From assembly GCA_030386875.1 (NCBI GenBank), contig CM059579.1, forward strand, positions 15,348,484 to 15,412,483: DNA of 64,000 bases, read 5' to 3'. Under the pieces are notes generated by a model. It worked only from the letters and a program-made list of their open reading frames with translations. It was not told the DNA's origin and did no database searches. Positions 3,901 to 64,000 of the stretch are shown piece after piece. Position 1 is the first letter of the stretch; each line of letters begins with the position of its first letter. This stretch comes from Morinoia aosen (taxonomy: Eukaryota > Arthropoda > Malacostraca > Amphipoda > Talitridae). The position numbers and the translations under genes are program-made.

Positions 3901-4269
3901 TTCTATCCAATCCAAGGAAGCAAATTGTATCTGCAGCAATTAAAAATTCTTTGTAACAGGTGTTCCTATCGCATCCTTCTGTTATTACTCTGAAGAACTT
4001 CGCATTTACTTTAACAACATCTTTTGCACCTTTTCTGCCGTTGTAGACAGATTCAACAATCATTAGACACTAATAATAATATAAATGATGTCATCTTTCC
4101 GAATGAAATACCATGTGACCCATGCACTCAAAACTTTGCGTGTTTGATTCGTCATTTATTACTAAAATTCTCAAAAAAAAGAATAATGGCTCATTGGTTT
4201 TAGCATCAAATTATTGATCTATGAGCAATGAAGGTCTAACTCTAATTTCGAGCCTTCAGTTATTTGTTA

Positions 4270-4730
4270 GAGAAAAATCACATTTTTCCGCTGCTCAACG
4301 GACGAATTCTCGTGGTTTTAATACAAAGTTAACGCTGCGGAAAATTTGTCTATGAGAGCAGGTGTTTTCTAATTGCAGCTCTTCCGTAGAATTCAGATTT
4401 GTGCAGCTTCCGAAGAATAGTTTTGGTGAAAACCAAGTTTTGTACGTGTTTATTGAGGTCTGCAGTGATTTTAAGAGGCGTCGTCTTGCGACCTCTCTAA
4501 AAATTCGATTTATGGTCTGACTGCCAGTTTAGACTTTCGGCCAGAACTCAGTTTTGCTGAGAAGGTTTTTCTTTCTCTTTTAAGTCAGTCATTTTATTCG
4601 AGACAGTACTTTTCAAAACGTCATGCGTTCGCGTAGTTTCTGTCACACTAGCACCTGCCATATGAGCACCAACAATTTGGCCTCTATGAAAGTCAGAGTG
4701 TTCTGCCATTTTGATAAGGTTATAGCCAAA
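4270..4730 (-). mobile_element. Tc1-like transposon relic (N-terminal transposase)
   Basis: On the minus strand the start of a Tc1-type transposase is readable: a helix-turn-helix region with RGQIVGAHMAGASVTETTRT, followed by fragments resembling the GRKTTPLKITADLNKH region. The catalytic DDE half is not recognisable and there are stops and frameshifts, so the copy is dead. A parallel copy lies at about 25040-25500. Terminal inverted repeats were not found. Confidence 0.65.
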
Positions 4731-4955
4731 TTTATTTAGGTACCGGTAGAACAGTTCATATCGATAAAATCTCAAATAGCTGCAATAATAATTAATAAAA
4801 CATTTTAATATGCCTAGTTTTGATTCTTTATAACATGCTCAAAGATTATGATTCTATAATATTGGTTGTTTTCATTATTTTTGATATATGTAACTTCTAA
4901 ATTTTCAACTACTAACCGTACGAATGAAAAGAACAAAAAAACAAGAAATACTTAC

Positions 4956-5304
4956 GCACGAAAGACTGCCTAATCTTGCAGGTAGTGGCACCGACGGTTC
5001 CATTCCGTCGAGCAGCAACACTCTTCAGGGCATCATCGCCCCACGTCCGACACTGGGCCCCAGGGCGGTCTTTTGAGAAGCAGGAGGCCTGGCCCCACTC
5101 CAGCGCTTGCGATATGGCGAGACAGTGCATGGCGGAGTCCGTGTAGTTCGACCACACTCGTCCTCCACTTTCCATCATGGCAGTTTCGTTGAGTACAGAT
5201 GAGACCCACACCTCTGTGGTGTGAGACTTTCCACATTTCCCCACTGTTCCACGGACCGTAAAAGCCCAAAACCCAATAATGTTGAATAAATTTCCATATC
5301 CCAT
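4956..5304 (-). CDS. Lectin gene A, exon 1 (signal peptide and PAN-like domain)
   Basis: First coding exon of a secreted composite lectin. The start chosen is the ATG before GYGNLFNIIGFWAF, because it gives a signal peptide; an in-frame ATG lies 11 codons upstream. A domain with four cysteines follows (in HCLA, ASCF, AQCR and TTCK), containing the conserved block ALEWGQASCFSKDRPG. The spacing resembles a PAN/apple module, but this is inferred. The exon ends in phase 1 at a GTAAGT donor (4951-4955). It is open over 349 nt. An extra cysteine (GKCGK) is found only in this copy. The next lectin exon expected downstream, the 102-nt exon 2, is missing: the sequence joins DNA that in gene B lies about 1 kb further on. 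Exons 3 and 4 should be outside the window. Confidence 0.85.
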
Positions 5305-5339
5305 TCCAAAGTTTAGAAAATATTTATGGCCTGTCATGA

Positions 5340-7440
5340 AAACCCTGAAATTAAAAGTTAGAATGTGGTTACAAGAATGCAATCGGTGTTAAATGTAAGA
5401 TATATGACCGCAAATGGGAAATAACAAAATGAAACAACGAATGAATTATAATACTAATGCTAGTTCATACGAGAACTGGATTTACTTTTAAAAATAGTGA
5501 ATACAACGTTGAAACCTCATTTCGACAACGTTGATGGAACCTCAATATAAGAAATTTTAAACGCCTGCTGCGAGTCACTTCAAGGAGCTTCAGCTCTCAA
5601 TGGTTTCCAAGCTTATCTGCCGTCCAACTTCAATGCAATCCGTTCCCAGTGATGATGCACCACGCTCATATCAAGGTGCATTGTCATTACTTCTTTCTGG
5701 TTGAAAGCAAATTAACATCGGAACGCGCATTCAAAACCTGCGAGGAGGTATCGCTCATGTGCTTGGTATTGGTTGCGAGCGAGGAATGACTGATAATGAC
5801 GAGAAAATTGGATATCATGACTGTAATTAGATAAATTACAGATTCCTACCGGAGAAATGGATTCGTTAATTTTGTGCGGCCAGTAATGTCATGCATATTA
5901 TAAAAGTGCAGAGGAGGTTATAGAGTGCTTTCAGGTGCAAAATGGCAGCACAGTTTCGGTGCATTGAGTCTTTCATTATGCTGGTGGCTTTTGAAGGCAT
6001 TATGAGAGAAGGAATATTAAAAATTTTAAGGTGCTTCTATAAAAACTGATTTGAGACAAGCATGTTATGTCATGCTGCGTTTTCGAGGAACCACATGAGC
6101 TATACGAATTTAAACTTTTTAAACTTTAAAACAAACTCTGGCATCACTAGTTGCCTCTGTGGCATTTCGGAAAATGGATAGATGTCACAATGCATTCTTA
6201 CCGCAAGGGTAGAGCGCTCATGAACATGTGACAGGATACCTTTACAATAGCATCAAGTGTCAAAATAATGGTCAAAGCAATATTGTTCTCACCACACGCA
6301 AGCAACGTGCATAACAAAATGGTTTCTACTATGATCATGGAAAAAAGGAGTGATTTTGCTCACAAGTATTCTGTGGAAAGAAATTCAATTTTAGTGAATA
6401 ATGCTCATGTGTGGCACACATAAGTAAATTCGGTTGTTTTATTAGTGAAATACCTAGAGATCACTATCTAGATTTCCCCTAGGATTAACATAGATATATA
6501 TCCATTTCGTAAATAAATACCCTTGAAAACTTTTGGGAAGACATGCATGGCATGGCCACGAATTAGCTTTCCAGCAACTGTTAGAGACAGTATTAACGCT
6601 GAAAATTATACAATAAATTTTCAGAACTGAATCACGAGTATCCAAACCAAACTGAAAGATCAGAATAGGAATATTCCTAAGACTTTGTTTTCAAAGACAT
6701 CATTGAAACGTGCAGTTCAATGATCAGCCTGTAATAAAAGAAAGTGAGTTTTTCTGGTGCACGAAAAATATGCATTGAGCCTGCCACTTTTTAATATCTT
6801 TCAAAGCTTCAATTTTTCAAGAAAAATATTTCTATATTAAGAATGTCATATCTTTATTGCTCTTTCTCAAATATATTTTCACTTATTTACTCAGTAGTGC
6901 TGTTCGTGTTTCAACCAGTCAAAATAAAAGTAATAATGAAGCATCTTAAAATATGAAATTTGTCCGAAGGACTTATTCCGTACAACGCACATGGCTTGCT
7001 CATAACAACAAATCATTTGGCAATTAAAAATTATTCACTTCAAAAGTATTGAGCTATACAATAAATAATTGAAGTTTTTACTACATACTTAATCCCCAGT
7101 ATCAAGGCGTTCAACAAATCAACTTTGCCGCTATCTTAGAACTTATCTAATAAACCCTGTCTTTGTGTGGGCGACAAAGTTAGCCTTAGTCCATCTTGAA
7201 TACATGACGAGAACCTTGGTTCTCTTCTGATGGAAACCTTCAAATTCGGAAAAAAATTTGGTCTATTTAATTATGCATACGCATCCTTGAAAGTGGAATT
7301 CACTGATTTCTCCGTAATATGGGCATTTTATCCTAAATAAATTTTGTGATGAATTGTAAGTTGGTGCGTGTGCTTCTCGACTAACTACAAATAGGGTAGG
7401 GGTGAAGCTCATTTATTTTATCTTCTTTAAATCTCTTTCA
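5340..7440. repeat. Lectin 5' flank, duplicated segment (copy 1)
   Basis: Intergenic DNA upstream of gene A exon 1, colinear with about 41590-43690 (gene C), and in part with 27070-28130 (gene B) and 59340-60000 (gene D). No coding sequence is seen. The similarity shows that the genes were duplicated together with their 5' flanks. Confidence 0.8.
5399..5407 (-). promoter_or_regulatory. TATA-like box upstream of lectin gene A
   Basis: On the minus strand the site reads TCATATATC, about 95-103 nt before the chosen ATG. The equivalent position in genes B and D also carries a TATA-like string, which supports both the start choice and a core promoter here. The transcription start itself is not known. 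Confidence 0.45.
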
Positions 7441-9060: not shown

Positions 9061-12000
9061 TGCCGACTTGTTGGAGTTTCTGGGTTTTCTGTCAGGTACC
9101 CCTCGCATGCTCTCTCCCCGCTCCGTACTTGCCTCACTCACCAACACAGGATACAGTGATTGCAAATATTTTCTTTCACCTCACACAACGCACGAACCAC
9201 ATCAGAAAGACGATCAAAGAAACTCGGCTAAACCTATCAAGTTTTTGCTTTCTTGACGAAGCAGGGGCTGGATGTAAAGGCTAACGTTCACGCGGCAACC
9301 ACCAACCGTAATTGTTCATATATCTTCTTAAAGTCATAATCTTAAAATTCTCGATAATAGTCTCTGGTATCCGCAGCCTTCATTATCATTATAATATTTT
9401 GAATAACGATAAAGAGTTCATACATTCCTATTTCGCACAGCGGCTTTGAACATGGATTATTGATATCTTGGCTAAAAATTAATGCCATAAACAGCATATT
9501 CAATATCGATGACATAATAATTGTAAGTCATGATGAAAACCGTAACAGACGAATTTATTTTCAAGAGTTTTCTCAAACATGATTTAATATTTCATGATTT
9601 TTCAGTCTCACCATCAGAATTAAATACATTAAAAATGAGCGATCCGTATGTTCCGATTTTATTTTTGAAAGCTGTTAGCCTTGTTCGTTAGTTTTCGAAA
9701 CCTAATCAATTAAGATTCAAAAAAGTTAGTCCGCTCAATTATTGAACGTGGAAATAAAGAATTTAAACTGTATTGCGCAAAGAAAACTAAATGTGATATG
9801 AAACTAAATGTTTTCACTAAATGTGAAAACATTGCCAAACACAAGAAATAATGCCTTCGTACGTATGGATCTTGAAAACTTAAACCTCATTACGGGCTGT
9901 TCATGAAGAATATTGAGTAGCATTCAACTGATTGAACGTCAAGTTGCCAGTCACAAAGGCATCCCTGAGCACAAAATTTTTATTTGTTTTTCTTTTTCGT
10001 TGTGGTTATCGTGAATCACATATATTATTTGATCCTCTGATGCTGAAAATCATATATATTTTAATGGCAAAAGTTTACTTTATGATTTTGATCACATAAA
10101 CCACAGCAGGTTCATCAAAACTTCAAAATATCTTTATATGGGAAATAAATAACCCTTAGAACTATGAGTAAATATTTCGGTACTTCCTAACTTTAATTAG
10201 CTTCAATTTCTCACAGAGTCGGCACAGAAATACTTCATTTCGAAGCATTTTCTTCATCTGAGTATACAGGCTTCTCATAAAAATAAAGGAACATCTAGAA
10301 AACGTTTTTCACAACAAAATTACATTGGATTGAACTCAGCTCATCATTATCGAGCTGCAAATTCAAAAAACGCCTGTTTGTTCAGGGAAGTGAATGATAG
10401 AAAATCTACGGGATTTAAAACCAGTATTTAAGTACCTAAATTGATTTTTTTTATTATGGATGTTACGAAACATAGAATAGGAGTTCGACTTTCACTAAAT
10501 TCACCTGTCTCGCTTTAGCCCTTAGACGTAAAGATTATCGTTTGTGTCGCATCTACAACAAGTTTACTCCATAGTCTAAGAGTTAGAGGGCATTTTTACC
10601 ACCTGGAGTTTCTTGATAACGAAAGCTGCGAATGCATTAAAAAATAAAAGACCTTAAAGTCAACCAGTTGAAGAGCCAGGTCTGAATTTCATGCTTAGAG
10701 TCCAGTGGAATAAATTGAAAATTTTCAACCAAATAAATTTCGCGAAATATATGTAGTAAGTTCAGCGAAAAATTAGAATTAAGGAGCATAATTCGAAATT
10801 CCCGATGCCACTTTTTCACTGCAAAGAAATTCGAAATTCTTCAATTTGAAAAACAAAATATTACATATATTTTAATTAGTTTAACTATTGCTCGCAGCAT
10901 AAATAGAAGTGCATGATTAAATTAGTTTCGTGTTGTCTAATATCATATTTATATTAAGCACAGACACACAAGTTGTATGTTTTTATGCCTTTTGCTACAA
11001 CCACACCACGGACGACATAGAATATATGATCTGCAAGAATAGATGGCATCTGCTCCTCACCAAGATACTTAGGATTGCCATTTCAGCAGAAAAATTGCTT
11101 CTGTGGAGTATTCCATAAATGACCACAAAACCACTATGAGACTTTTTGGCCAGGGCCTTTATATATGGTTTTATCAGCGCAGTGTAGAGGCTAGATTTTG
11201 GCCACTAAATTCATGGCTGCTTCGGCAAAAAAGTTCCACTGGGACGGCGTTCCAACAGCTTAACTTCACTCACAGTCCGAAGCTTATAATATAAACCTTG
11301 CCCAGCAGATTTACATTGTAATCCCGTGTTCAGCTCTCTGGGTCCTTTTAAAGCGCGTCGTATTAGTCTCACCGGGAAAGGCGTCTGGTCAGGAAAAGCA
11401 GTGCTTCGATGCGCTTTTCCGAGCCGTTGCTGTAGGTTGCCGTTTTCTAAGGGGTTCTTTGGCTACTTTGAATTTTCATTTTCCTCACTTTTAGTTTCAC
11501 TATAGCAATTTCCATTTCATTTTGTCAGTTGTAACCTTGATCCCTAAACTTCATTTTTTTTGAGGAGACATAAGTCTACTCATATTTAATTTTCTTCATT
11601 TATATTTTTTTGAGAATTGGTAATTTAAAAGACGCAAGCCACATTGAAGGTTTTAGCCACAAAAAAAAGCGTGAGTCACATTCAAGGTAATAATTACTTC
11701 GAAGGCGTAAAGCTATGAATATAAATTCGCAGGACCGTAAAAGCTGGAGATGTGACCCATCTCGTTAGAAAACTTCTATTTATCCATGATTTTAATATTG
11801 GATATCCTGAAATGCTTTTGACAACTATTTCTATTTATTCTTCGCTCACTGAAATCTTCAACATTTGAAACATTTGCTCCACCTAAGCTCGATTTTATCA
11901 GGTAAGATAAATCAGCGAACTAATCAAACATACCTTATATAAAAGTTTCAATTAAGAATAAGCTAAACTTTTGTTGCGGGATTTCTTTGAACCCTTAGGT

Positions 12001-14738
12001 ATTTCTCACACTGTTCTGTAAACTATTTGGAAGTCTGGACTCCTCGACACACTTTCTTTTGCTCGTACTGTGCTAGTGCAGTTATCGAGCTTCATACTTG
12101 TTTTTTGACATCCTTCTGCTTAAGAAGACAATAGACAAATGCGTCCAGTTTGGTCCTGTTGGTGCTCTCTTGCTGTGGCTGTGTCGTTCGATTTACGAGA
12201 GGCAAGTTCTTACGTATTTGTGGCAGATTAATGTGCTCGATTCCGGCTGCACAACTTTTGTATTTTATCCTGTACGCTCTATCCATCTTTGTTGCCCAGT
12301 TGCCTCTTCTCCTCGCCTCTCGTCTCTTAAATTTTTACAAAAAAATATTTTAATGAACGCATTTTTACAATCACTTCCATACCTAATTTTCCTCACTTTC
12401 TGTGAATTAGGTAAAGAATTCTTCGGGAAAGTCACATCCTCCGTGAACTTCGCTTTGGTAGCAGAATAGATACCGTCATTTTCAGCCTATGTTTCTTAGT
12501 TTGTCGGTTCGACGTCACTCGCCTTCACATCTCGTTTGCAAACCTCTTTCCAGGATAAAATCAATAGTCTTGCATGTCTATGACTAATAGTGAGCTAACA
12601 GTAGAGGATGTCGTGCAGGATTCGTCTATCATTCATTCGTCTGAGCTGAACAGAACCACTGAAAAATACCCCGAATCGGCAATACAAACAAGCTTGAGAT
12701 GACAGCTTTTTGAATGGCATCGGTTTTTACTACACAGTCTTCCCGTGTGATCACTAAAATTCTAGTGGAATCGAAAGGGTGAAAAGTGTTTTGCCGTGTT
12801 TCTGATCGGAGTACAGCATCTACGAGTACGTCTAGCTATAGTAGAGCGAATTGATGGTTGCATAAGCTTGCTATGCATGCATTTTTGTGTTGATTCCCCA
12901 CCCTCCTCAAGTGGACTTTGGCTGTTGCTGCTTTTTCAATCTACTAGTCCAGTTTGAGGTTCAGAGGGAGAGTATTGAATTCGAGGTAGATGAATTTCTA
13001 AACAACCTCAAGCTTACATCCAAAAATAAAGATTCAAGCCGCTCCCTTACCGGCCCATGATTTCAGTTTTCTTCTGGTGAATAACCACGCCAAATTCTTT
13101 GCACACAGGAAAGAAGAGGTCAATGAATCGCTTCAGTGTTTCATTGGGTGGGTGACTAGAATGACGTCATCTGCTATTAGTATCTTTATGTATTCGTTGC
13201 ATTTTTCTTTTAGGTTTAAGGAAGGCATGGTTGAAGAGGGTATCTTTGTTTCTAGTGTATCTGATTAAATGGGCTGGCATGGTTCTAATGTATCTGTTCA
13301 GAGTACCTGCCATAAGTTTCAGTGTATCTGGTTAAAGTGGATGCATTAGACGCTTGTATTCTCACAGCATCCACTAACTGTAATCATAACTTGAGAAATC
13401 TCGTAAACGTATTGGTATTACAGCTTGAATATAAACTCGATTTTCGATTTCACTGAGTATTCGCAAACTCTGGCAGTGACAAATTTCATTCTTTCATAAA
13501 AAATAAATTTTAACGTTAAACTTGAGTATCCAAATTAAAAGTTAATAACGTAAAGAAATAGAAGCTTTCACTGAAACGAAATACTTTTCCTTGAAATTAA
13601 ACGCTTCAGTAACCTAGAAATGCTTAACGATTGGCCGACAGTTTATCCAACTTTTTGTCATTTATTGAAATTGACCTGACATTTTATTTACTGTATTCCT
13701 GGATTTTTTACCATGGTATTTAGTGCTAGTAATTGAACGCCGTAGCTTCAGATACTTTCTAGAATCGCTTAAAGGTTGGAGAGATCTTGTGTTGTTGGCC
13801 CCTGTGCTCCATCCAGGCTCCTGTGAACTCCTGGTGCTGAGGTATTCTTTTTTGTATTTTACCACAACGCGACCACTTTCATGAAGCTGTCTAAACTGTG
13901 CTGTTGGGTGCTCACACGCTCACAGTTTTGTCTAAGTTAAACAACCGATTAGAGAGCCGTCCAAATTGGTTGCGAAATTTTCAGTTTTTGAACACAGTTG
14001 TTATAGCTTGCTCGGAGCCATTTGCTGAAAAAAAAAAATATTCAACTAGATGGTTATCTTGTCTAATGTGAATTGCATATCTTATTCAAAGCATGATTTT
14101 TAATGAGTTGTGCGCTTAGACCTTGAAGAATCTGATTGACCTATTCATATGCTAAAAATTAATTTTGAATATTTTTAACATTAGCTTTGCTGCTAAAACT
14201 TCGTAGAATCTACCCACTTAACTGTAGTATGTAAAGAATAAGCCCCATCTTCTTGTGGACATCAGTTTGAATTTATGCAGAATTTGCCTGTGTTGAACTT
14301 TTACACAATGAAATCTCACTGTTTGAAGAATTCTTATGCAATGAACCGCTTTTCATTTTGCAATGCACCACTTTCAGTGTTTGCGCCTTACATTGGACCT
14401 AGCCATTGAAAGGCTTGTGCCGGAGTATTTGGATGATTTTACATATAATCCCAAGTTTAGTACAGTTATGTGCTTTATTTTTAGTTATCGATAATTTTTT
14501 ACCGTGTTCATGATTTTGAAGGCTAATTTTTGAAACGCGTAAACTTACGTTCGAATTACCATGTGTTCATTTATTGGTTTGCTATTAGAAGACAACTAGA
14601 TGGTGCTTACGATTGAATTTTCTTGAAATAATTGTGACGATTCGGAGAAATCTGCTCGCGGCCGTGACATGTGAAGAAACATTGATTCAGGGAGCAAGAA
14701 GCCAGAAATGACTAACCTAGCTTATTAAGTTCACTTTT

Positions 14739-15106
14739 TCATTTTCTAGCACACACTTCCACACGTTTTCTCTCAAGGTCTATTAGAGAGCTAAAATTTT
14801 CATCTGTAAAAGCCTTGGCGCACTTTTCGCTCGGGTAACTGTTGGGTTCTGTCGGTATCCGGTGGGCTTTGTGGGTATCCGTTGGGCTCTGCGGGTATCC
14901 AGTGGGTACTGTGGGTATGTGATGTGTTCTGCGGGTATCAGGTGGGGTATGTGGGCATCCGTTGGGATCTGCGGGTATCTGTTGGGCTCTGTGGGTATCC
15001 GGTAGGTTCTGTGTCGGCCCTATCTCCTTCACTTTTAGGCCCGGGGCTAGACCCGCTCTGTAGTCACTGCCATTTGCCGCTAATTATCTTCACCACCACC
15101 TACATG
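14739..15106 (-). pseudogene. Dead lectin terminal exon with minisatellite in its sugar-binding loop
   Basis: Read on the minus strand, this aligns end to end with lectin exon 4. There is a VVVK / SGKWQ / SSPGPKSEGD beginning (live copies have WVAVKK, KWQW, SGR.PG), then a repeat array, then SEKCAKAF and a closing VEVCARK stop (live copies have EECARV and SVCQV). Key tryptophan codons have become stops, so it is a pseudo-exon. It lies about 3.4 kb downstream of the exon 4 of gene B, so it is either an alternative terminal exon that died or the last trace of a further lectin gene. A sister copy is at 49177-49595. Confidence 0.8.
14844..15020. repeat. 20-bp minisatellite, about 9 units
   Basis: Tandem units near GGGCTCTGTGGGTATCCGGT (plus strand). 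On the minus strand a unit reads like CAGAACCCAACGGATACCC. This matches the codons for the TDPNG part of the CTLD EPN loop in the lectin terminal exons. The array lies exactly between the parts of the dead exon that flank that loop. Confidence 0.85.
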
Positions 15107-15659
15107 CCATCTATTTATACAGGATTGGAATGGAAAAGAATCGAATGAAACATAGGGGAAAAATTAGGGATACAGATTAATGAAATTACTTATTTGTAGA
15201 ATTTTACCACATTATTGGCTGTTGAGAGCCAATAATTATAGTTCTGAATGATTGAATGTGAAAACATAATATTAAGTATTTTTCACTTCAATCACACGTT
15301 TTTCCCAGCAACCATGCGTTACTAGGGAAGAGAAGTACATCCCTGACTTGGAATTAACGAGTGTAGTGTTCCATATTGTTTTTTGCAGTTCTGTTCGCGA
15401 TAGTTTCCATTCCAGTGAATTCGGTGCAGTCACAAGCAGTTCAGTGCAGCCAAAACTACACGCGCACTAAAGCATTAAATACTGCCTAAGGTTAAAACTG
15501 GTAAATACTACGGATTGGCTTTCCTCAGTAATTTGATGGCACTCAGTGGAAGCCACTTACCAAAATTTCTTCATGTCAGGGGGCTAAATAACAGCTGGAG
15601 GAAAGGAAATTACGCCTGTTTCACTGTACTGTCGCTGCCAAGTCATGCTAACAATGCTG

Positions 15660-17524: not shown

Positions 17525-18545
17525 TTTATTCAGGTAAATATTACTCAGGACGGATAGCGTGTTGTGCATCATTGCGGTGTTTCTTGTTATACGGTAAATT
17601 TCATCAGAGGCTCATAGACAATGACGATGCAACCTTTTCCATCGCTCATTTTGAATATTTTTTTCCACATTTTGTTCTTAAAATGCAACTTAATCATAAA
17701 AAATAACTCAGCAATTTGCTCGGATATTTTTGGGTTTAGTGAATTTTCAGCTTTGATTTCCAACTATGTCGTTATTATCAATCTTATCGAAAGAAATGTC
17801 AGGAACAATTTATTCGACATCATATTCAGTATTCATCCTTGTTCTATATATCAGAGTGACCGTTCCTTTCAAAGAAAAATAGCCTACTTAAGCTTAGCGA
17901 AGAAAAAATTTCACACTGCACCTTACGAGAGCATGTTTCAAACACTTTAATCCCAGTTCTAGCCTCGTCTGCTGTACAAATTACAATATATAAAGAGAGG
18001 GACAGAAGAAAGTAAAGCTAAAACTTTTAAATCTCACTTTTCGTCTCGTGTACAGTTGAGATAATTCATCGACATCGCTTATGTAATTGAAAGGGAGAAA
18101 AATTAAGATACACAATTTAACAATCCAGCACAAGTCAAACTTGTCTGGAAAATTAAATAACATGAGTTTCGTTTTCCTTTGAGGACAGGCCAACACAAAA
18201 AAATATTTGTAAAAGACTCCACATAAATCAGCAACTATTTGAGCGGTTCAGGAAGTTTTATCCTGTAGGATGTGGAGAAGCAATGATTGTATAGTTTACT
18301 TATTTTTTTCCTCTCACAAAGCAAGCTTTCACACACCCTCACATTGTTACAAATGGTTGTCAATCTTTATTTCCCGAGATAGTTTCGCAAGACTCGCCAG
18401 TCAACGAAATATAGCCGATGTGGGAGGTTAAATGACGGCTGAGCTTAATGAGTGCAGTGGTTCGTGCGTCAAAAGTGAAATTTTGACATGACTAGACCTC
18501 CAGAATTTAGATGCATGGTATCAGTCAGCAGTCGGAATTAAAAAC
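17525..18545. repeat. 3' flank of lectin gene B, duplicated in gene D
   Basis: Colinear with about 50700-52082 downstream of gene D. It includes the putative 3' UTR and poly(A) signal. In the gene D copy a solo LTR interrupts the segment. Confidence 0.7.
18366..18371 (-). terminator. Candidate poly(A) signal of lectin gene B
   Basis: AATAAA on the minus strand, about 175 nt after the stop codon. It is conserved at the same relative place in gene D (51897-51902). Confidence 0.5.
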
Positions 18546-18766
18546 TTAATTCGATGTCACCTGACAAACAGAATTGAAAAATGTGTTGCATTTTGTACCG
18601 GCGAGTTCGAAATCCACTTCTTTCATGACCCTGGCACATTCGTCGCCGCTTGTTGGTTCGTTAGATTTCCATGGATATTGATATGCGGTCCCAACATTAC
18701 GTCCGCTCGGTATCCACTGCCACTTTCCGTTTGTTTTCTTTACCGCCACCCAAATGTGTTCGTGTT
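18546..18766 (-). CDS. Lectin gene B, exon 4 (C-terminal half of CTLD)
   Basis: The acceptor is a T-rich tract ending TTAACAG, and the exon enters in phase 1. It reads HIWVAVKKTNGKWQWIPSGR, then a loop with NEPTSGDECAR, then two more cysteines in TKC and SVCQV, and a TAA stop. The cysteines in DEC, TKC and SVC fit CTLD C2, C3 and C4. The calcium/sugar loop keeps EP but has T in place of N, so classical EPN binding is doubtful. The exon is open. Confidence 0.88.
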
Positions 18767-18769
18767 CTG

Positions 18770-20700
18770 TTAAAAAATAACAAAACATCCCTGGAATCAA
18801 TTCGAAAAAATGATCTACTGCTTAGAAATGTGTGGTGAACGGCTGAAAATCATTTCTCACACTGTAAGGTCAGGACTCTGCGACAATAGGGTGTCATCAA
18901 AACTTCATAACATCAAAAAAGTATTCGTGAGAACTGCAGGTTTTTCAACAAGTCTCAGATGGATTAGGCATCAGTGTAAAAATTTTGAAAGGAATTTAGA
19001 AAAGAATTCTCAAAAAGAATAATCCAGCTGAACTGTCAGGCAATGTCGCTGACTATTCAGGCGTAAATGAAATATAAATTTCCCATCTTCTACGTTTCTA
19101 AGTGGATATCATAAACGAGTGTGAGCATTCAATGCAGACATCGGTCAAACGGTGAGTGTTTTACAAGTATTTCGTTCTAATAGCATCCCAAATGTAGCCT
19201 CGCACGTTTTTATTAACGTCGATGGTGGGAATTTTTGAACCTTTTTAAATTCTGTAAGGAATGAAATATTATTTACATTCACTAATATTGTAAAAAATGA
19301 AAAAAATTCAAATAATATCAGTTCCTGATCTTGATCGCTCTGTGAATTGATCACACCGTGTATTCATTAATTATCCCGATCATTCAGTGAACAGGTCGCA
19401 GTGTCCCGAGAGCTCCATTGAGTAACTCAGGGCAAAAGCTCATAGATTCATTGTCTAAGAATCGCTGCTATAATTCATGCATTAATCCCCAACCTTCTAG
19501 TGGAATGGGCACAAAGAGAGCAAGTTTTAAACAGTGAATTTTAGATATCAAGGCGACGAAATTAAAATGACTCGTGGTTTGATGTTGAAACATGTTGATA
19601 TTTTGGAGGGTGTAATTGCACAAGTCTATGGGAACAGGAGCTGCGACTATTTGGTAGAAACGGGTTTTCAATATTCCTGAATGAGCACCAGGATGAAATG
19701 GAATTACCTAGTGGCAAGTTTGGTTGAAAAACTATCTTTCTATTTTTAGTTTGGAATGTTGGTCGATGTGAAAAACAGATCGGGTTCGTTCATTCCTCTG
19801 CCTTCTAATGCTCATTTCGGGCTTTCTAATGCGCAATAAAAGGACCGAAAAGCCCTCAATGGATCAGAAATGTATATTATAGGCCTTTATTGTGTATGCA
19901 GTTTAAATTGACGTCAAGGCCACCGTTTTTTTGAGCACACCTCACCTGCAATAACATCCGAATATAATCTTTTGTTTGCAATGCAGCTCAAAAGAAGGAA
20001 AAACTTCAATTTGAGCCGCTCTAACAATCAAACAGCTTCAAACCTTTCACTGTTCTTGAGTAGAGCCACAAGAAAGGCTTTCAGTTCCCCATACACTTAT
20101 AGTAAAGCTATAGTAGGTCGAAGAAAACGTCAGACAAATTAGCAACAAATTGTGAAATGAATAATAAAAATGCAAATAAACCAAAATGAGGCATTTCATG
20201 ACAGTATTCCACTAAAAGATTTTATCGTTATTTTTGGAAACCTGGGAAAACCATGGTTGAAATGATTTACAATATGACTTGGAAAAAATATTGACTTGCA
20301 AATAGCTGGAAATCGATGCACCTATAAGACGAACTGCAAAAAAGTGTATGAGTTACAAAACAATAATAATCAGTACAATAATCTTATGGTGCAAATATTG
20401 ATTAAAATGATTTTAATTCAGTTTATTGGTTAAATAATAAATAATTATTATTGATTAATTCATGTTGCAAATATTAATTATATGTATGCTGATAAGACGA
20501 CCTATGATCTTCATAAGCAAAAGATAGTAAAAACTATTGTAATATTCATGAATATAACGGAATTAAAGTTCGATCATCTTACAGTGAATGAATTAGAAAC
20601 TCTGTATTCGCTAGAGCGTGAAATTTTCATCCACGTACGAAAAAGAAACTGGGAGAGGTGCACAGGAGTGAGTATAGTTTCAAAATGAATTCAAATATGA
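18770..20700. other. Intron 3 of lectin gene B
   Basis: 1.9 kb of AT-rich sequence. Parts near 18810-19100 match 52330-52600 (gene D intron 3), and parts near 19740-20690 match 36500-37320 (gene C intron 3), confirming common descent of the introns. No gene is seen. Confidence 0.6.
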
Positions 20701-20705
20701 CTTAC

Positions 20706-20891
20706 CGGTGCCGCTTTCATTGAGAAAAGTCCTCAGTTTCTTGAACTCCGCATCAGTGTTGGCCGTGTACAAGTCCGCCCTGAGATCCTCGCATTTCTGC
20801 CGCGCGCTGGCCCAGTTCTTCTTAGCAGACTCGATGTAGAGGCAGCCGGCGTGGGTGCATTCGAATGGCTTAGGGCAGTGTTTGCGGCTTT
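20706..20891 (-). CDS. Lectin gene B, exon 3 (N-terminal half of CTLD)
   Basis: 186 nt between acceptor AGCAG and donor GTAAGT, phase 1 at both ends. It encodes a long-form CTLD start: KHCPKPFECTHAGCLYIES, then the helix ASARQKCEDLRADLYTAN and a C-terminal LNESG. The cysteine in QKC is CTLD C1. HC and AGC fit the extra N-terminal hairpin pair. FEC is an additional cysteine not found in genes C or D. Confidence 0.88.
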
Positions 20892-21759
20892 CTGCTCAAA
20901 GCCAACAATACATCGCAGAGAAACTCAGACATACTGTACATAAATTTTGCAAATTTTAGTGCCAGACAGTACAACTTTTATGGTTCAATGAGTTTTCATT
21001 CAAACTGCGAAGCTTCAGTTGCCAGTTTTAAAAATGACCACGTACGCGTAGACTTAAATAAATCTGTTGAAGACAACTCTTGAGGGTTTTATTAAAAAGG
21101 GACGTCTCAATTGATAACCACAGTTCCTAGGCATTCCTAACTGTACAAACTGAATTCCAGCAAAGTTTAAGAGCATCTTCCCTCCCCCCCCCTACATCTT
21201 CAGAAAGCATCTTCAGTTCATTGACATAGGTTTGTCATCTTTCGTGGACATGATTTCATCTTTTTGTCATGAATCGATGTTAATATCTCGACAGACTCGT
21301 TCATTTAAAGATCTTCTTGAAGCTTTAGAACTTATCATTAATTACTTTGGCAGTAGTTGACCTGTTGAAACGACCGGTTAAATCCGAAATCCCGTCTTTC
21401 TACAGATTTTTGCAATTACATCCTGAAATCTATCGATTTTCAGCTTTGTCTAACGATCTTTACATTATGTTCATTCAATACATGCAATTCACCCACATGA
21501 CAATTTTCTCCTCCCACCATGTTGAAGTTCAACGACTGAGGGCAGCGTTCTGCCGTATGTAGGCGGTTGAGGCTTTTCTCCAAGCATGAGGGGCATTATG
21601 CTCTTCACGGGGACCGTCTGAGTCAAAATCCGAAATATTCTTGATTTTCTGTTTTGAACTCTTGGTATCGAAAATGTTCTTCCTAATCTAACGATTTGCT
21701 TCAGTTCCTAGTAACTGTGTTCGTTAGTTTACTACATCTTACAAAAAATCAGTCAAATA

Positions 21760-26156: not shown

Positions 26157-26723
26157 CTGGAAGTAAGCACGAGATAAACTTCATTAAATTCTAGTGATAA
26201 ATATCAGCGAAAAAAAGAATTAAATCGAATTTCTGAGATTTTGTTTTGTCCAAAAAAGTGCTTATATGTATGTACTCCACAAGTAAACACGCATACAGGT
26301 ATATATATTTATGTTGGCGCCCGAAGTTCATGAAGCAACAATTATTTATTGAAGAAGCACTTATGAAATATGAGTATGACAACTTCGTTGTGGAGGAAAT
26401 TATATCAGAAACATGAAAAGGCTCACAAAATGATCGCTGAATCGTTTTTTTAAGTAAATTCAAATTTCATTTTTTATTGAAGATATCTCAGGAAGGAATC
26501 GCCACACGGTCAGTATGCCTGTTTGCTGAAATCATTAATTGATTCAACAAATGATCTGTCTGTTTCACACAGTTTCTTATTTGTGGTTTCGATGACAACT
26601 AGACAAAACGAATCATTCTTCACTTCTACAACATCCTTAAACTGCAGATATGTACGAGTATAACTGCTATATTTTCAACTAACAACCGTACACAAAAAGA
26701 ACATAAAAACAAGAAATACTCAC

Positions 26724-27067
26724 GCAGGAAATCTAATCTTGCAGGTGGTGGCACCGACAGTTCCGCTCCATCGAGCGGCCACACTCTTCAGGACATCATC
26801 GCCCCACGTCCGACACAGGGCCCCAGGGCGGTCTTTTGAGAAGCAGGAGGCCTGGCCCCACTCCAGCGCCTGCGATACGGCGAGGCAGAGAATGGAGGAG
26901 CTCGTGGAGTTCGACCACACTCGTCCTCCACTGTCCATCATGGCAGCTTCGTCGAGTACAGATGAGACCCACACCTCTGTGGTGTGAGACTTGCCACTTT
27001 TCCCTACAGCTCCAAGTACCATAAAAGCTCAAAATCCCGCAATGTTGAATATATATCTAGATCCCAT
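26724..27067 (-). pseudogene. Lectin gene B, exon 1 (broken)
   Basis: Paralogue of the other first exons with the same PAN-like block (ALEWGQASCFSKDRPG). The signal peptide reads MGSRYIFNIAGF and then TGA (27031-27029) where the paralogues have TGG. Near the donor, KIR is followed directly by FP, because 5 nt are missing relative to KIRQSFVR, so the exit phase is wrong. The donor is GTGAGT. Confidence 0.85.
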
Positions 27068-32840: not shown

Positions 32841-33073
32841 TTAATTGCATACAACGCTGCAAATGCTATTAAAAGTACTCGTTTCACATGAAACGTCTCC
32901 GAGTTTGAAGTCACGTTTTTTCATCGCTCTTGCACACTCGTACCCATCCTCTGCTCCGTTGGGGTCATTCACAGCCCAGTCTTCTTGCGTGTCTGGGCCC
33001 GGACTGCGTCCGCCCGGAAGCCACTTCCACTCATCGTTGATCTTTTTCACCGCCACCCACAAGTTGTTGTAGT
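32841..33073 (-). CDS. Lectin gene C, exon 4 (C-terminal half of CTLD)
   Basis: 233 nt to a TAA stop. It reads NNLWVAVKKINDEWKWLPGG, then a loop with VNDPNGAEDGYECARAM, then VSC and NSICSVVCN. DPN is close to the EPN sugar-binding signature, and YEC, VSC and SIC fit CTLD C2-C4. An additional cysteine sits two residues from the end, unique to this gene. Confidence 0.88.
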
Positions 33074-36000
33074 CTACGGAGCGAAATTAAAAAACAAGAT
33101 AGTACGCACTTATTTGAAAGAGGATATCGTTTCCCAAAATATCCAAATGAACTCTAAGTTTTCTCAACTGATGCTGCTGATAGGGTTCGTGAAAGGACAA
33201 ACGTACATTGCAGTTACTTTAAAACAGGAATTCGTTGTTATTAAAACCATTTCACAAAAAGTTTCGCTACCTTTCAACGTTTAAAAACAGCTTTGTCACA
33301 CGAATCAGCATTGAGAAACTTTTCAGGAATCCATTCCTATTTAAGCATATCTGTGAAGTATCTGAGTACTGACTGACACGTAGTAGAACCAGTTTACTCA
33401 AAACAATTCTTGATTTCGGAAATATTTCAACTTCTCTGTTTCTGGTAATAGAGAATTTTTGAATGAAATTGTTCCAGCTTATGGTCTATTGATGATGAGA
33501 ACTTGTGTTTAATGAAACTCTAAAAATATTGCTAAATTATGTAAAACCATGCAAACATTTCTGTGGGCACCGTAAATAATTTCAAACTCTTTATAAAGTT
33601 ATAATTTATTTAAATTTCAAACCAACTAATAGCCAACAATATTTTTATTTCTATTAATAACGATTAACATGAATTCAAATTAAAGCATGAAATATTGGAA
33701 TTCAGACAACTGCAAACATATACCGGGTGTCCCAACGAAGAGTAGACAAATAAAAGTTTGGTCTTTCCAGTTATATAACTTTTAATCAGAACAAATCATT
33801 TATCTAATAGGAGAAAGGGTTTTGTCTTTAATAACATCCAAAAATATTTGAACATATCCTCCTTTTTCTTGATAACCTGGCGGAGACGAGGCATCACCTG
33901 ATCACACATGGCGTGCACAATTTTGGCGTCAATTTCTGCCCAAGTTTGGGTCAGGTTTTGCTTCAGAACCTCCACAGTTGAGTGTGATGCAGCTTTTGCT
34001 GCAAGATTTCGTGCTTATTGAACGTCGAAATTCATTCAAGAGACAAAAACCAGCCTCCGTAATGGCGTGGGCAGGGGCTACTTCAAGTCTCAAAACCCCT
34101 TCGATTTTCATCGAGGCTTGTGTAAAAATCAATCAATATGTTTATCTGACGATTTTAATGAATGACGTTGTTCCTAGGGCGAGGAAAGTCACTGAAAATG
34201 TAGGAATTACACTTCAACAAAATGGAGCAGCCTCTCCCACAGCCAAATTGGTCCAGGACTGGTGCAAAGACAATTTCAAGTTGTTTTGGCCAGAGGAGCT
34301 ATTACCTCTGTCTTCTCCTGATTTAAATCCAATGGACTTTTGGATATAATCTCTTGGATCAGAAGTCTTGCGCTTTATCACACTCAAGTGTCTCGTCTCC
34401 GTCAGGTTATCGCGGAGAAAGGAGGATATATTGAATAATTCTTGACTGTAAATAAAGGCAATACATATCTCTTAGTTGATACACGAGTTGTTTTGATTGA
34501 TCTTCATATAATTGAAAAAACCTAACTTTAATTTGTCCACACTACGCTGAGACACCCTGTACACCTTTCGCTTTATTCCATTGTAACTTAAATTTGTCAC
34601 ATCGATGAGATACTAACTTCAAACAGGGCAGATAGCAAATCGTTACTGTAGGTCTGTTTTTCCTCTTTTATTTTAGTTATTGTTTCATTCTAGGTGAGGA
34701 AAGACTCAAATGCCAGGGCTCAGATGTGTTCAATTTTGACTTTACTGTTCTTGTCTAACAGTCCACTCAGCATTAGGTATTCAATGGTGCTTCATTGTCG
34801 TTGATTTAAAAATTTAAAAAAGAGTAATCGAAGAACGTCTTGCTTCTTCATTTCTCTACTTAATAGCAAAATCTTTATGGTACTCTCATCTGTATTTAAC
34901 GGTATCGATTACAACCCATACTACATTGCACTGCCGTTAATGTTCAGAAAACCAACCAGAAATTTTTTATCAGCTGGTAAATCAATGACTTTCAATGACC
35001 TACTTGTGGTCTCGTCATCCTCTGAATTTATTGGAATGCATCGAGTGTCCTAATGTACAATCGTTGGACTGCATCGAGTGTTCTAATGTACAATCGTTGA
35101 CTGCATCGAGTGTCATAATGTACAATCGTTGACTGCATCGAGTGTTCTATTGGACAATCATTGGACTGCATCGAGTGTTCTATTGGACAATCATTTACCT
35201 AACTTCAGTTTATCATTAAGTGGAAAGTGCAGATGGAACTCTCGCATTTTACAGCAATCACTCATTTTAATAGTACCATGTGGCTGTAGAGTGAGTTAAC
35301 TTTAAACGGCGTACATTTTTGAGACTGATGTTCAGCTATTAAAATAGTGTTTCTTTGAACATAAAAGTTAAATCTGTTAGAGTTTGGACAGGATACGGTT
35401 CTGCTTGTTCCTCGCACCAGAGGCTTTGACTGCATAAGCACAAATGGAAAAATTAAATCAAATACATGAGTGTCACGATAATGTAAAACAATATTGCTTC
35501 GTGCATTTTTCGAACAAAAATTAATGAATTTTGTGGTAACTTCAAAGTGGCTGAAAACCTGTAATAGATGATCGCATGGAAAATGTTAATATTAAAATGA
35601 AGAATTAACAGAAACGAATTCATACAAAATTCAAGAATCACATAGGTAAGGTAGAGGACCTTTTATTGCAGTCTATAATGCAGTGTGGACTCTCGCAGTC
35701 ACTGTAATCTCTGACGAGTAATCACATGTAAAGATGCATTACAGGCAAATATACGTGAATATATTTTTCACGCACAGGATAGTCCTCCATTTATTCATAG
35801 GTACACAACAGCGACAACTGAGCGTTGGTCCCAAGTTACGTTCCGATTTAGCCTTCAAGTTAATAGCCGCCAATGAAAGAAAAAAACTCATGCTTTCAAA
35901 AGCAATAGTTTGAACATAAATTCATTTCAATAACAAACACGAGTGAGAAAATCTATAAAAAGAGCAGGCTCTTTTCATAAGTATTTCCATCACCGTATTA

Positions 36001-41548: not shown

Positions 41549-41589
41549 TTCAAAGTTTAGGAAATATTTATTGCCTGTCATGATCACCC

Positions 41590-49176: not shown

Positions 49177-49595
49177 TCATCTTCTGACCCACACTTCCAC
49201 GCATTTTCTCGCAAGGCCTATATGAAAGCTAAATTTTTTCATCTTCAAAAACCTTGCAGCACTTTTCGCTCGGATATCTATTGGGCTCTGTGGGTATCCG
49301 GTGGGCTCTGTGGGTATCCGGTGGGCTCTGTGGGTATCTGTTGGGCACTGTAAGAATCCGGTAGGGTTTGTATGTACCCGTTGGGCTCTGCGGGTATCCG
49401 GTGGGTTCTGTGGGTATCCGGGGTCGGTTCTGTGGTTATCCGGTGTGTTCAATGGGTATCTGGTGGGTTCTGATGGTATCCGTTGGGTTCGGTGTCGGGC
49501 CAATCTCCTTCACTTTCAGGCCTGGGGTTAGACCTGCTCTGTAGCCACTGCCATTTTCCGTTAATTATATAGTTATCTTCACCGCCACCTAAATG
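49177..49595 (-). pseudogene. Dead lectin terminal exon with expanded loop, copy 2
   Basis: Same relic as 14739-15106. Exon-4-like beginning (AVKI near 49580; SGKWQW-like stretch, RSNPRPES-like stretch), then a longer minisatellite, then an AKSAARF remnant of EECAR and a closing EVWVRR stop. It has a small extra duplication near ATTATATAGTTAT. It is broken and lies between gene C exon 1 and gene D exon 4. Confidence 0.75.
49279..49495. repeat. 20-bp minisatellite, about 11 units
   Basis: Units near GGGCTCTGTGGGTATCCGGT, the same family as 14844-15020 but about two units longer and with one irregular unit (GGGGTCGG). The length difference between paralogues shows that the array kept changing after the duplication. 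Confidence 0.85.
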
Positions 49596-52082: not shown

Positions 52083-52306
52083 CTAATTCGGTTTCACCTG
52101 ACACAGAAAATTTTCAACTTTATCGCAAGGTCTAGCAGCGAGTGTGATGGATACCCCAATTTTCACGACCCTGGCACATTCGTCGCCGGCTGTTGGTGCG
52201 TCATATTTCCATGGATTTTGATTTTCGGCTCCAACAGCACGTCCGCTCGGTATCCACTGCCATTTCTCGTTGATTTTCTTTACCGCCACCCAAAAATCTT
52301 CGTTTT
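52083..52306 (-). CDS. Lectin gene D, exon 4 (C-terminal half of CTLD)
   Basis: 224 nt, acceptor ATTGCAG, TAG stop. It reads EDFWVAVKKINEKWQWIPSG, then PWKYDAPTAGDECARVV, then RPC and NFLCQVKPN. The cysteines in DEC, RPC and FLC fit CTLD C2-C4. It lacks both EPN and WND motifs, so calcium-dependent sugar binding of the classical type is unlikely. Confidence 0.88.
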
Positions 52307-55300
52307 CTGCAATAAAAAAATTTCAGCAGCCATTACCAAAAAATGATTAACTGCATAAAAATGTGTGATGAAAGACTAAAAGTCTTTTCTCACACTCTGA
52401 GGTCAGAACGCGATGAAAATAAGGTTGCATTAAAATATCATAACATCAATAAAATATTCGTAAAAACTGCAGATTTTTCAATAAGTCATAGATGAGTTAA
52501 GCATCCATGTAAAAATACTCTAAAGGAATTTTGAAGGGAATTTCCAAAAAGAATTATCCAGCCAAATTATCAGGCAATGTTGCTGAAGATTCAGGCCTAA
52601 ATGAAAAAAATTTCCACTCATCCATGTTTCCAAGTTGATACCATAAATGTGTGTGAATATTCAATACAGCAAGCGGTCAAACGGTGTTTTAGAATTGGCT
52701 GCTCCCGGTGTTTTACGAGCGGTGTTTTAGAATTTCAAAAAGCGGTATTATACAATTATTTCGTTCCAATGGCATCCCAAATGTAGCTGAACACGAGTTT
52801 TCAACGTCGAGGTTGGGGATTAATGCATTTCTTTAACACTGGTTAAGAAAAAATATTTTTTACATCCACAAGTTGATCATTTCAAATAGGTTAAGCATTA
52901 TTTATGCAAAAGCTTACTTGATTTTTCTCAAATTTATAATGAATAAGGAGCGTATTCCCGAAAAATATACTAAGTTACGAAATGAGGAAAAAATTATACA
53001 ATAAAAGAGGAGTAAAAGTTTCGTGTAGAAAAGAACTGATTGACAAAAAATGGTTGCAACACGGTCTTCCATTTACATAACCCAGTAATCGTTCGATATA
53101 CATATCTCCTGCAGGCATTCAAACAAAATTTATGTGATGTTTTTCTTTTAAGAACACATTATAACACTTGAATTATTTTGAATTACTGGATGAATTTGAA
53201 TTTTGAATTTTGTTACCAATATTTCAATATAATTTGACGTAACTCATCCAGTGCCCAAGCAGGACTTAAATTTGGTTTGTCTGAGGCAGTGCAGCGTTTG
53301 GCTGATTTGTAAGCCTTTTCTCGGTGTAGATCCATCGTACGATGGTTTTTGATTACTCTTCAATAAAGAAGAAAAAAGTCTAACTAGCGAGCAAGTCGAT
53401 AAGGTTTGGGGAACGTTTTACTGTCCTGGTTGTGTTGTGAACTGATTACACTCTGTCGAGTATTCTGATTGACAAATCAAGGCAAAAGCTTTTCCATTCA
53501 TTGTCTAAGGAGTGTTGCGATAACCCATGTATTGATCATCAATCTTCTGGTTGAAAGGTTGCAAAGAGAGTAGGTCATATAAATAATAAACTTGAGATTC
53601 TCTGGTTTTGCAGCAATATGCAATAAAATTCCATAGTGTTGGTTTTATTTGATTTGAAAACTTGATTTTTGTTTTGGTTCGGAATGTTTATCAACGTAAA
53701 TAACGGATTACATTCGTTCAATCACCTGCTCAACGTAAATGCATTTATTGAAATTTCATCATGAGAAAATTTTTATAAAGTATACTTGCAAAAAGAATCC
53801 CTCGTGGATGGCAGCACAATACCAATGTATGTATATCGTAGCTGAAGCAATGTTTGAATAGTAATCGTTGAAAAAAGCACCAGGAGCTAAAAGAAGGACA
53901 TTAATATTGATGAAAAGTGAAAATTTAGGTTATGTAAGTTGTATATAAAATAATGAATAGATACGAAAAATATTTTTGTGCAGTGCTACTAAAGAAACTG
54001 CACAAATTATTCAACTATTCTTTTCATCAAACGTCAAAATAGTACACCTAATATCATTTCTCGTTAGTTCAGAGGGTAATTTGTTTTATATCACTTAATT
54101 ACACTATCGACACCACAGCACACAAAAAACAGACGTGCTGTGATCAACACTAGCAAGAGCAAGAAGCTTTGCTCTTTATTAAAGGCACATGAATACATTT
54201 ATTAAATCTAAGTCTAATTTCTCTAAATTATAAAAATAAAATAACTTCATGCTTTAACTATACATAAATTTTCAAATATCTCTGCGTTTCAAATTTTCAG
54301 GCACCGCACACAATACACAGTGAACTATACACAAGATTATCCATAATGTAGTTGTCTGTAATTTACTATTCATACTAAGTGTCAGTCGATTGATTTGCTT
54401 TCCCTAATTCTAATCCAAAGTAAACCAAAAGGTGGAAGAAACTTAACGTTGAACCTAAAAACATTGCTAAAGGGGGTAAAAAACCTTTGAATATTTCATC
54501 TTAGCTGATAGTGATTTTTTTAAGGCTACCTATTTTCAGGACCTGGATACAAATTTAAAATTTTTCGCATGATACAAATGAGAAGAAAAATATTACTTGA
54601 AATGTGAATTAATTTGGGCTTGGAAAATAATTTATGAAACTTAGAAGAGCAGAAGAATTGGTATTACTGGAGACTTTTGTTTTTAGCAGGATTTACTTTT
54701 GAATTTTGTGTTAGTCTAAAAATTTCACATACATTCAAAAATAATTTTGCCGTCTATTTGTATGATGTTCACCTTTTTTTATTGCAGACACCGAATTTGA
54801 ATAGCGCTGTATTCGAAAGCTTCATTTTCAATATTAATCTCAATTTCGAAGATATTAAGATATTTTAATCAAGTTGACAAAACTTTTTTAGTGTCGATTG
54901 TGTACCTCTGAAGAAATACAATAAAACTTATAATAAAACAGCTAATATATAACAGTTTCCTGTTGAATGATTATAAAAATGGTGCTTGTCAAAGCAAAGT
55001 TCTCTCTTTATGATTTATGAAACAGGACTGCAATTGAGCTTTATTGTCATGATGAAAATCAAAGAAATTAAGTTTATTTTAAGGCCTAATATGACTTGCT
55101 CGAATGATACCCTAATTTTCCTGAAGAATGCATTCAATACACATTTGAAACGCTGGCTCAGATTTCACTTACCTTTGCCGGATTGGTTCAGGTAAGCCCT
55201 AAGGTTCTCGAACTCCTCTTTACAGTTGGCCATGTACAAGTCCCCCCCGAGTGCCTGGCAGTTATTCCGCGCCCTGTACCAGTCCATCTCAGCGGACCCG

Positions 55301-59311: not shown

Positions 59312-59339
59312 TCCAAAGCTTAGAAAATATTTAAGGCCT

Positions 59340-62612: not shown

Positions 62613-62614
62613 GT

Positions 62615-63507: not shown

Positions 63508-63734
63508 AACTCAATAACTTGTGGGTGGCGGTAAGGTAAATCGGAGGGGAGTGGCTGTGGTTGCCCAGCGGTCGCAATCCCGGGAGCTCCGGAGAAGGAG
63601 ACTGGGCGTACACCGACCCCAACGGATCTGAGAGCGAAGAATGTGCCAGGGTCGTGAGAGATAGAGGCTTCAAACTCGGAGATCTAGGCTGCATGACAGA
63701 GTTTAGCTCTCTGTGTCAAGTAGTATTGAATTAA
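63508..63734 (+). pseudogene. Orphan CTLD terminal exon with one internal stop
   Basis: The acceptor (TTTTTTTATCCGGCAG) and phase are as in lectin exon 4. It reads NNLWVAVR, then TAA (63537-63539) where the paralogues have AAG or AAA, then IGGEWLWLPSGRNPG, TDPNGSESEECARVV, GCM and SLCQVVLN with a TAA stop at 63732-63734. Apart from the one stop it is intact, with a DPN sugar-loop signature. It is the only lectin exon on the plus strand, and no exon 1-3 was found on the plus strand upstream. It may be an inverted, displaced copy. Confidence 0.85.
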
Positions 63735-64000
63735 GCTTTAGAATATGAGCGAATGAATACTGGCATTATGCTTTAAATGAATCGACCTTTATACCTGTAG
63801 GCCAAATAAAAAACGCCTGAAAAAATTTCGTGAAAATCTTGTCAAAAGAATTCACGTTCAAATGACCCCCTAAGTGTACGGTGGTCAAGCGCTAATGGCC
63901 CGGAATGCTGCTGGTTAGATTCACAAAAATTTAAAAAAATATAAGTGCGGTATTGAACGGATTTGCTGAAAAAAGCTCTCTGTAACACTATTCATGATGT
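63735..64000. other. Right edge, nothing recognised
   Basis: AT-rich, no open frame or repeat recognised. Confidence 0.5.

What the first reader, a model, noticed from the sequence alone, without database searches (positions are those of the whole stretch)
14739..15106. A minisatellite born from the sugar-binding loop of a lectin exon
The 20-bp array sits exactly where a live exon 4 encodes the DPN/EPN loop. The sequence before it (GAAGGAGATAGGGCC) and after it (GAGCGAAAAGTGCGCCAAGG) aligns with GAAGGAGACTGGGCG and GAGCGAAGAATGTGCCAGGG of the intact exon at 63508. The repeat unit itself (AGAACCCAACGGATACCC) matches the loop codons CCGACCCCAACGGATCT. The loop was therefore amplified in place. 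A 20-bp unit cycles through all three frames and is free of stops in each, so the expansions read as a Pro/Thr-rich 20-residue repeat.
Basis: seen in the sequence. Interest (0 to 1): 0.8.

Follow-up and report, generated by a model that had tools for sequence, protein, structure and literature searches.

The report
Dead lectin exon became a minisatellite
A 20-base stretch that once coded the sugar-gripping loop of a C-type lectin was copied over and over inside its exon, but every array-bearing exon found is broken, so this is a traceable minisatellite birth rather than a new kind of lectin.

Summary
The core observation holds. On the minus strand, nine 20-bp units (14833-15012) replace the single copy of the T-E-P-N-G-Y-P loop codons in a C-type lectin terminal exon. 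Array-free sister exons carry 24 or 27 nt there; array exons carry 24 plus about 20k nt. Seven arrays (9-20 units) were found: five in this lectin cluster, one of them also in the window (49272-49493), and two in a related cluster on contig C6. The seven group together, so the array most likely arose once and spread with lectin-gene blocks. A 28-base unit pattern has 52 hits in 1.99 Gb, all inside these arrays; reversed control 0.

The functional reading is not supported. All seven array exons have a stop near the splice acceptor and further damage downstream; exon and intron diverge nearly alike, and stops inside arrays are not rarer than simulated. The "live" exon at 63508 has an in-frame TAA, though two sisters are open. 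Best explanation: a neutral minisatellite in a relic exon, hitchhiking with lectin genes. Whether array or exon death came first is unresolved. Interest is modest.

The parts
14833..15012 (-). Array A2: 9 units of 20 bp, consensus ACAGARCCCAMCGGATACCC
   Evidence: TRF; unit split; 28-mer pattern
15013..15110 (-). 5' part of the relic terminal lectin exon after acceptor ATAAATAG; stop TAG at 15100-15102 in place of the conserved Trp, TGA at 15064-15066
   Evidence: Alignment with 7 array-free exons; reading
14731..14828 (-). 3' part of the relic exon (SEKCAKAF...), with a 1-bp deletion; end approximate
   Evidence: Alignment
49272..49493 (-). Array A3: second copy of the same relic exon array, 11 units (one of 22 bp)
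   Evidence: TRF; unit split; flank identity 83%
18546..18764 (-). Open lectin terminal exon (exon 4, EPT type) about 3.5 kb upstream of array A2, in the duplicated block; 5' end approximate
   Evidence: Pfam PF00059, 4.7e-06; tblastn
20683..20895 (-). Probable exon 3 (first half of the lectin domain) of the same gene
   Evidence: ORF and tblastn; no Pfam match by itself
52083..52322 (-). Lectin exon 4 about 2.6 kb upstream of array A3 (ORF limits)
   Evidence: ORF and tblastn
63508..63740 (+).

Best explanation
A minisatellite that most likely arose once, in place, by tandem copying of about 20 nt of the EPN sugar/calcium-binding loop of a C-type lectin terminal exon. The exon is a non-processed relic (upstream intron and 3' flank kept, no exon 3 found beside it). 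The array and the relic were then copied as passengers of lectin-gene blocks of roughly 10 kb, within the C24 cluster and to a cluster on C6. Since then the arrays have grown, shrunk and diverged (9 to 20 units). Shown: the in-place origin, the grouping of the seven copies, stops near the acceptor in all seven, no detected coding constraint, and one length change after duplication. [quoted passage not shown]
For: Array-free sister exons carry 24 nt (5 of 7) or 27 nt (2 of 7) between GCCGAC and GAAAA; array exons carry 24+160, 24+180, 24+280 nt (A2, A4, B1) and 24+202, 24+202, 24+339, 24+378 (A3, A5, B2, A1). The two flanks, searched apart, return the same 14 places. A branch with UFBoot 100 separates the 7 array exons from the 7 array-free ones. 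Trp codon: stop in 7 of 7 array exons, TGG in 7 of 7 array-free. In the array clade the 5' exon part diverges like its intron (0.137 against 0.162) while in four array-free exons it diverges about half as much (0.126 against 0.232). Both unit variants (CCCAAC and CCCACC) occur in all 7 arrays. A1 and B2, 97.3% alike in flanks, differ by 39 bp of array. All 52 pattern hits lie in the seven arrays. Block homology runs across the array.
Against: No flanking repeat of 5-10 bp, as the usual birth model wants, is seen at the reconstructable single-unit site (1 nt at the 20-bp register; 4-nt repeats at spacings 17 and 23 only). The stop at the Trp is TAG in five copies and TGA in two, and the downstream damage differs (1-bp deletion in A1, A2, B1, B2; stop in A3, A4, A5), so damage in the founder is inferred by parsimony. 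Four of the 7 array-free exons (all on C5) are damaged too, so damage is common in this family and not tied to the array. The codon-position test is weak: array-free exons show no third-position excess in the 5' part either (0.109/0.152/0.116). A1/B2/B1/A3/A5 branching is only partly resolved (support 75 for B1). No transcript or population data.
Confidence: 0.86

Rival explanations
1. The array is a functional coding repeat: an expanded, Pro/Thr-rich sugar-binding loop in a live lectin.
For: The consensus unit is stop-free in all frames, and at least one frame is open across the array in 7 of 7.
Against: Stop just after the acceptor in 7 of 7, further damage downstream in 7 of 7, no exon 3 seen beside them. 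Stops in the arrays are not fewer than in a rough simulation (probability of a total as low as observed 0.24-0.95; rate set by hand for the four arrays with indels), and an open frame is expected in 71-90% of simulations.
Confidence: 0.03
2. The relic exon is used as an alternative last exon of the lectin gene 2.6-3.7 kb upstream (same strand, 7 of 7), giving a truncated lectin.
For: Position conserved in 7 of 7 blocks; the AAATAG acceptor is kept in 7 of 7.
Against: It would end the protein two residues after the splice, before the second half of the domain; exon and intron evolve nearly alike. The shared position is explained by block duplication.
Confidence: 0.06
3. A dispersed satellite that inserted into lectin exons, so the resemblance to the loop is secondary.
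For: Two other contigs (C14, C25) hold arrays of 19-20 bp with 72-77% local similarity.
Against: The C14 and C25 units differ (GGGACTGTGGGCATCCCTG; ATACCCAACATGTCCACCGG), give no hit to the 28-mer pattern, and the 10 kb around each shows no lectin exon (tblastn E 0.35 or worse). The array unit is the loop sequence itself, in register.
Confidence: 0.02

Closest known systems
Rlec lectins of Macrobrachium nipponense (PMC7536079; abstract and passages seen)
   Same: C-type lectin multigene family with a tandem repeat in a lectin exon; copy number varies between paralogues, ascribed to slippage.
   Different: There the repeat is 30 or 33 bp (frame-keeping), outside the sugar-binding domain, in expressed genes, 1-9 units, with function tested. 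Here it is 20 bp (frame-breaking), inside the domain at the EPN loop, in damaged exons, 9-20 units.
Antifreeze glycoprotein repeat birth in notothenioid and gadid fishes (PMC8622921; passages seen)
   Same: Tandem amplification of a short stretch at one place (partly non-coding in notothenioids, non-coding in gadids), then gene-family duplication carrying the array.
   Different: There the 9-nt unit keeps the frame and became a selected protein; here the frame breaks and no protein is likely.
Minisatellite birth model of Haber and Louis 1998 (as described in the review PMC6947457; passages seen)
   Same: A unique stretch is duplicated, then expanded by slippage or unequal exchange.
   Different: The model calls for 5-10 bp flanking repeats; only 1 nt is seen at the right spacing here.
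Frame-shifting tandem repeats in human coding regions (PMC1273636; passages seen)
   Same: Coding repeats whose unit is not a multiple of three exist and are under-represented.
   Different: The repeats counted there are mostly of 2-6 nt in live genes; this is a 20-bp array in a relic exon.

Membership tests
C-type lectin domain terminal exon (relic) | Homology over exon and flanks to open lectin exons of the same genome | tested here: met
   sisters C24:15485 and C6:48764 without stops
C-type lectin domain terminal exon (relic) | EPN motif of calcium site 2 at the array position | tested here: met
   EPT of the window's sister gene aligns with EPN of CLEC4M (8rcy_A); array exons read ADTEP(N/T)G at the array start. 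Which residues bind calcium is from PMC7536079 passages and recalled knowledge
C-type lectin domain terminal exon (relic) | Pfam Lectin_C match of the array-bearing frame | tested here: not met
   no family for window:14739-15083:-; also none for the open exon 32841-33086, so this test is weak for half-domains
Minisatellite | Head-to-tail units of more than 9 bp | tested here: met
Minisatellite | Copy number varies | tested here: met
   9-20 units among paralogues; 39-bp change between A1 and B2; variation among individuals not tested
Functional coding tandem repeat (Rlec-like) | Open reading frame through repeat and domain | tested here: not met
Functional coding tandem repeat (Rlec-like) | Transcribed and translated | not testable with these tools
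   no RNA or protein data held
Non-processed pseudogene or relic exon | Intron sequence kept upstream, disabling mutations | tested here: met
   up to 200 nt of upstream intron aligned; stops in 7 of 7

The most novel reading that the evidence does not exclude
The loop was first amplified while the exon was still live, giving a short-lived lectin with a repeated EPN loop, and the exon died later because a 20-bp unit cannot grow one by one without breaking the frame. The array would then be the cause of the exon's death, not its consequence, and a sister species might still carry an expressed expanded-loop lectin.
Probability: 0.12. Interest if true: 0.6.

Novelty: new member of a known kind. 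Interest (0 to 1): 0.3.

Why it matters
It offers the empty site and the filled site of a minisatellite birth in one genome: seven array-free sister exons and seven array-bearing copies of graded age. Growth, decay and homogenisation of an array can be read against a close relative of its starting sequence. It also shows how easily stop-free, Pro/Thr-rich frames appear in such arrays without need of a protein function, a caution for annotating repeat proteins.

Tried and rejected
Functional reading of the array: rejected on the stops and frame damage, with weaker support from divergence.

Unrelated satellite: the C14 and C25 arrays were fetched and checked for lectin homology; none at E below 0.35.

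Structure-driven instability: four CCC runs with loops up to 8 nt occur in 7 of 7 arrays and 0 of 7 array-free exons, but with loops up to 7 nt in only 1 of 7 arrays; left as a weak idea.

Species identification: the Coagulin family gave no match, uninformative because no control genome rang either. TTAGG arrays are abundant (6769 + 8723 matches, reversed control 0), which suits an arthropod by recalled knowledge. The species was not determined.

Literature: six searches of the held library (listed of found: 9 of 9, 15 of 1,753, 12 of 14, 5 of 5, 8 of 29, 10 of 56). None of the listed titles reports a minisatellite born from a lectin EPN loop; unlisted papers and papers outside the library were not seen.

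Limits: genome searches score only the best candidates, so 14 exon places are a lower bound. The sets are these 14, none dropped, except that one divergence row used four array-free exons (C24:15485, C6:48764, C5:14276, C5:10760), of which C5:10760 has a frameshift.

Full report
What is there. On the minus strand of the window, 14833-15012, nine units of 20 bp stand head to tail. The consensus unit, in lectin orientation, is ACAGARCCCAMCGGATACCC. Upstream lie a splice acceptor and about 98 nt of exon that read GM*VVVKIISGKWQ*LQSGSSPGPKSEGDRAD; downstream lie about 98 nt that begin SEKCAKAFTDENF. A second array of the same unit and setting is at 49272-49493.

It is a lectin exon. The flanks on either side of the array, searched separately against the window's own genome (1.99 Gb, 29 contigs), return the same 14 places (lower bounds). 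Seven hold an array (A1-A5 on contig C24, B1 and B2 on C6) and seven do not (C24:15485, C6:48764, and five on C5). Three of the array-free ones are open to their end (C24:15485, C6:48764, C5:14276), for example SVWVAVKIIESKWQWLPSGRDPGPRSEGDWADNEPNGLLGGENCATAFNEADFKLTDMSCTREFGAVCQEITK on C6; the other four, all on C5, have frame damage of their own. The EPT site of a sister gene in the window aligns with EPN of human CLEC4M in the Protein Data Bank. That EPN belongs to calcium site 2 and marks mannose binding is stated in PMC7536079 (passage seen).

The loop was amplified in place. Between the fixed words GCCGAC and GAAAA, array-free exons have 24 nt (5 of 7) or 27 nt (2 of 7): for example ACTGAACCCAACGGAGGCTTCTGG, which is T-E-P-N-G-G-F-W. 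Array exons have 24 + 160, 24 + 180 and 24 + 280 nt in A2, A4 and B1, and 24 + 202, 202, 339 and 378 in A3, A5, B2 and A1, which carry small indels. The unit is thus the codons T-E-P-N-G-Y-P less one base. The 28-base pattern of the unit, with up to three mismatches, has 52 hits in the genome, every one inside the seven arrays, and none for the reversed control. Arrays on C14 and C25 that resembled it in a looser search have other units and no lectin exon nearby.

Probably one birth, then copies. With the array left out, a branch with support 100 separates the seven array exons from the seven array-free ones; within them A2 and A4 stand apart (support 93) from A1+B2+B1+A3+A5 (rooted at midpoint). 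Both unit variants, CCCAAC and CCCACC, occur in all seven arrays, from which I infer that the founder array already had several units. Homology between the two window copies runs from 9552 to 15652 and again from 17605 to 19154 at about 80%, with a gap between; in the other copies it runs on almost unbroken from the array to the gene. Each array lies 2.6-3.7 kb downstream, on the same strand, of a lectin exon 4 (7 of 7). In the genome search six of these seven exons show no stop in the matched part, and the one beside B1 has a TGA. The arrays therefore travelled as passengers of lectin-gene blocks. One change after copying is plain: A1 and B2, 97.3% alike in flanks, differ by 39 bp (two units) of array, while A3 and A5, 98.5% alike, are equal in length.

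The exon is dead. The conserved Trp after the acceptor is TGG in 7 of 7 array-free exons and a stop in 7 of 7 array exons (TAG in five, TGA in two). Downstream, A1, A2, B1 and B2 lack one base, and A3, A4 and A5 have a stop instead. Tree and parsimony put a stop at the Trp in the founder, with the TGA of A1 and B2 a later change, but this is inference. No exon 3 lies near any array at E up to 1, other than those of the window's open genes. Divergence agrees but is a weaker test. Among array copies the exon parts diverge by 0.137 and 0.128, the intron by 0.162 and the 3' flank by 0.136; in four array-free exons the 5' exon part diverges by 0.126 against 0.232 for the intron, though their 3' exon part (0.219) does not differ from the flank (0.233). 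Codon positions 1, 2, 3 are level in the array copies (0.137, 0.127, 0.148; 3' part 0.149, 0.102, 0.131), but the array-free exons show no third-position excess in the 5' part either (0.109, 0.152, 0.116) and a moderate one in the 3' part (0.187, 0.197, 0.273). Stops inside the arrays, 21 over all frames of seven arrays, are not fewer than simulated (per-array probability 0.24-0.95), and an open frame through the array is expected in 71-90% of simulations. That simulation is rough: for the four arrays with indels the mutation rate was set to 0.09 by hand.

The 'live' exon at 63508 has an in-frame TAA; its sisters at C24:15319681 and C6:48820553 show no stop. That the unit is free of stops in every frame holds for the consensus; a 20-bp unit shows all three phases in any frame, so it is one fact and not three, and no evidence for a protein.

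Mechanism. [quoted passage not shown] The birth itself is less clear: the standard model wants short direct repeats of 5-10 bp beside the unit (PMC6947457, passages), and the reconstructable site shows one matching base at the 20-bp register and 4-nt repeats at spacings 17 and 23. The order of array birth and exon death cannot be settled, because no intermediate was found.

Compared with what is known. The nearest case seen is the Rlec family of a river prawn (PMC7536079, abstract and passages), where 30 or 33-bp repeats outside the sugar-binding domain vary from 1 to 9 in expressed genes and were tested for function. Here the unit breaks the frame, sits in the binding loop, and the exon is dead. 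Antifreeze glycoprotein genes (PMC8622921, passages) are the nearest case of a short stretch amplified in place and then spread with a gene family. I file this as a new member of a known kind: a minisatellite born from exon sequence, here a relic. Six searches of the held library listed no earlier report of this one.

Noticed in passing
window 38974-39972 +: Long open frame with a reverse transcriptase match (PF00078, 7e-13): part of a LINE-like element inside the lectin cluster.
   Followed up: partly
window 61994-62614 -: 206-aa open frame that looks like a Penelope-type reverse transcriptase; label recalled, not tested.
   Followed up: no
window 4912-5388, 26720-27028, 41180-41632, 58919-59374 (all -): Four open frames of one repeated element with nearly the same wording (about ALKSVAARWNGTVGATTCKIR), spaced about 15-22 kb.
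   Followed up: no
L029 (C14:37705000-37714999) 4135-5734: A 19-bp satellite, 84 copies, 98% matches; resembles the lectin array loosely, no lectin exon nearby.
   Followed up: partly
C5 near 10.73-10.76 Mb and 14.20-14.24 Mb (L048, L050-L052): Lectin exons on C5 occur in pairs about 3.5 Mb apart, a few percent diverged, with frame damage in those read; the C6 lectin cluster also looks like the C24 cluster in reverse order.
   Followed up: partly
window 35031-35192: A 33-bp tandem repeat, 5 copies, 91% matches, between two lectin genes; origin not examined.
   Followed up: no
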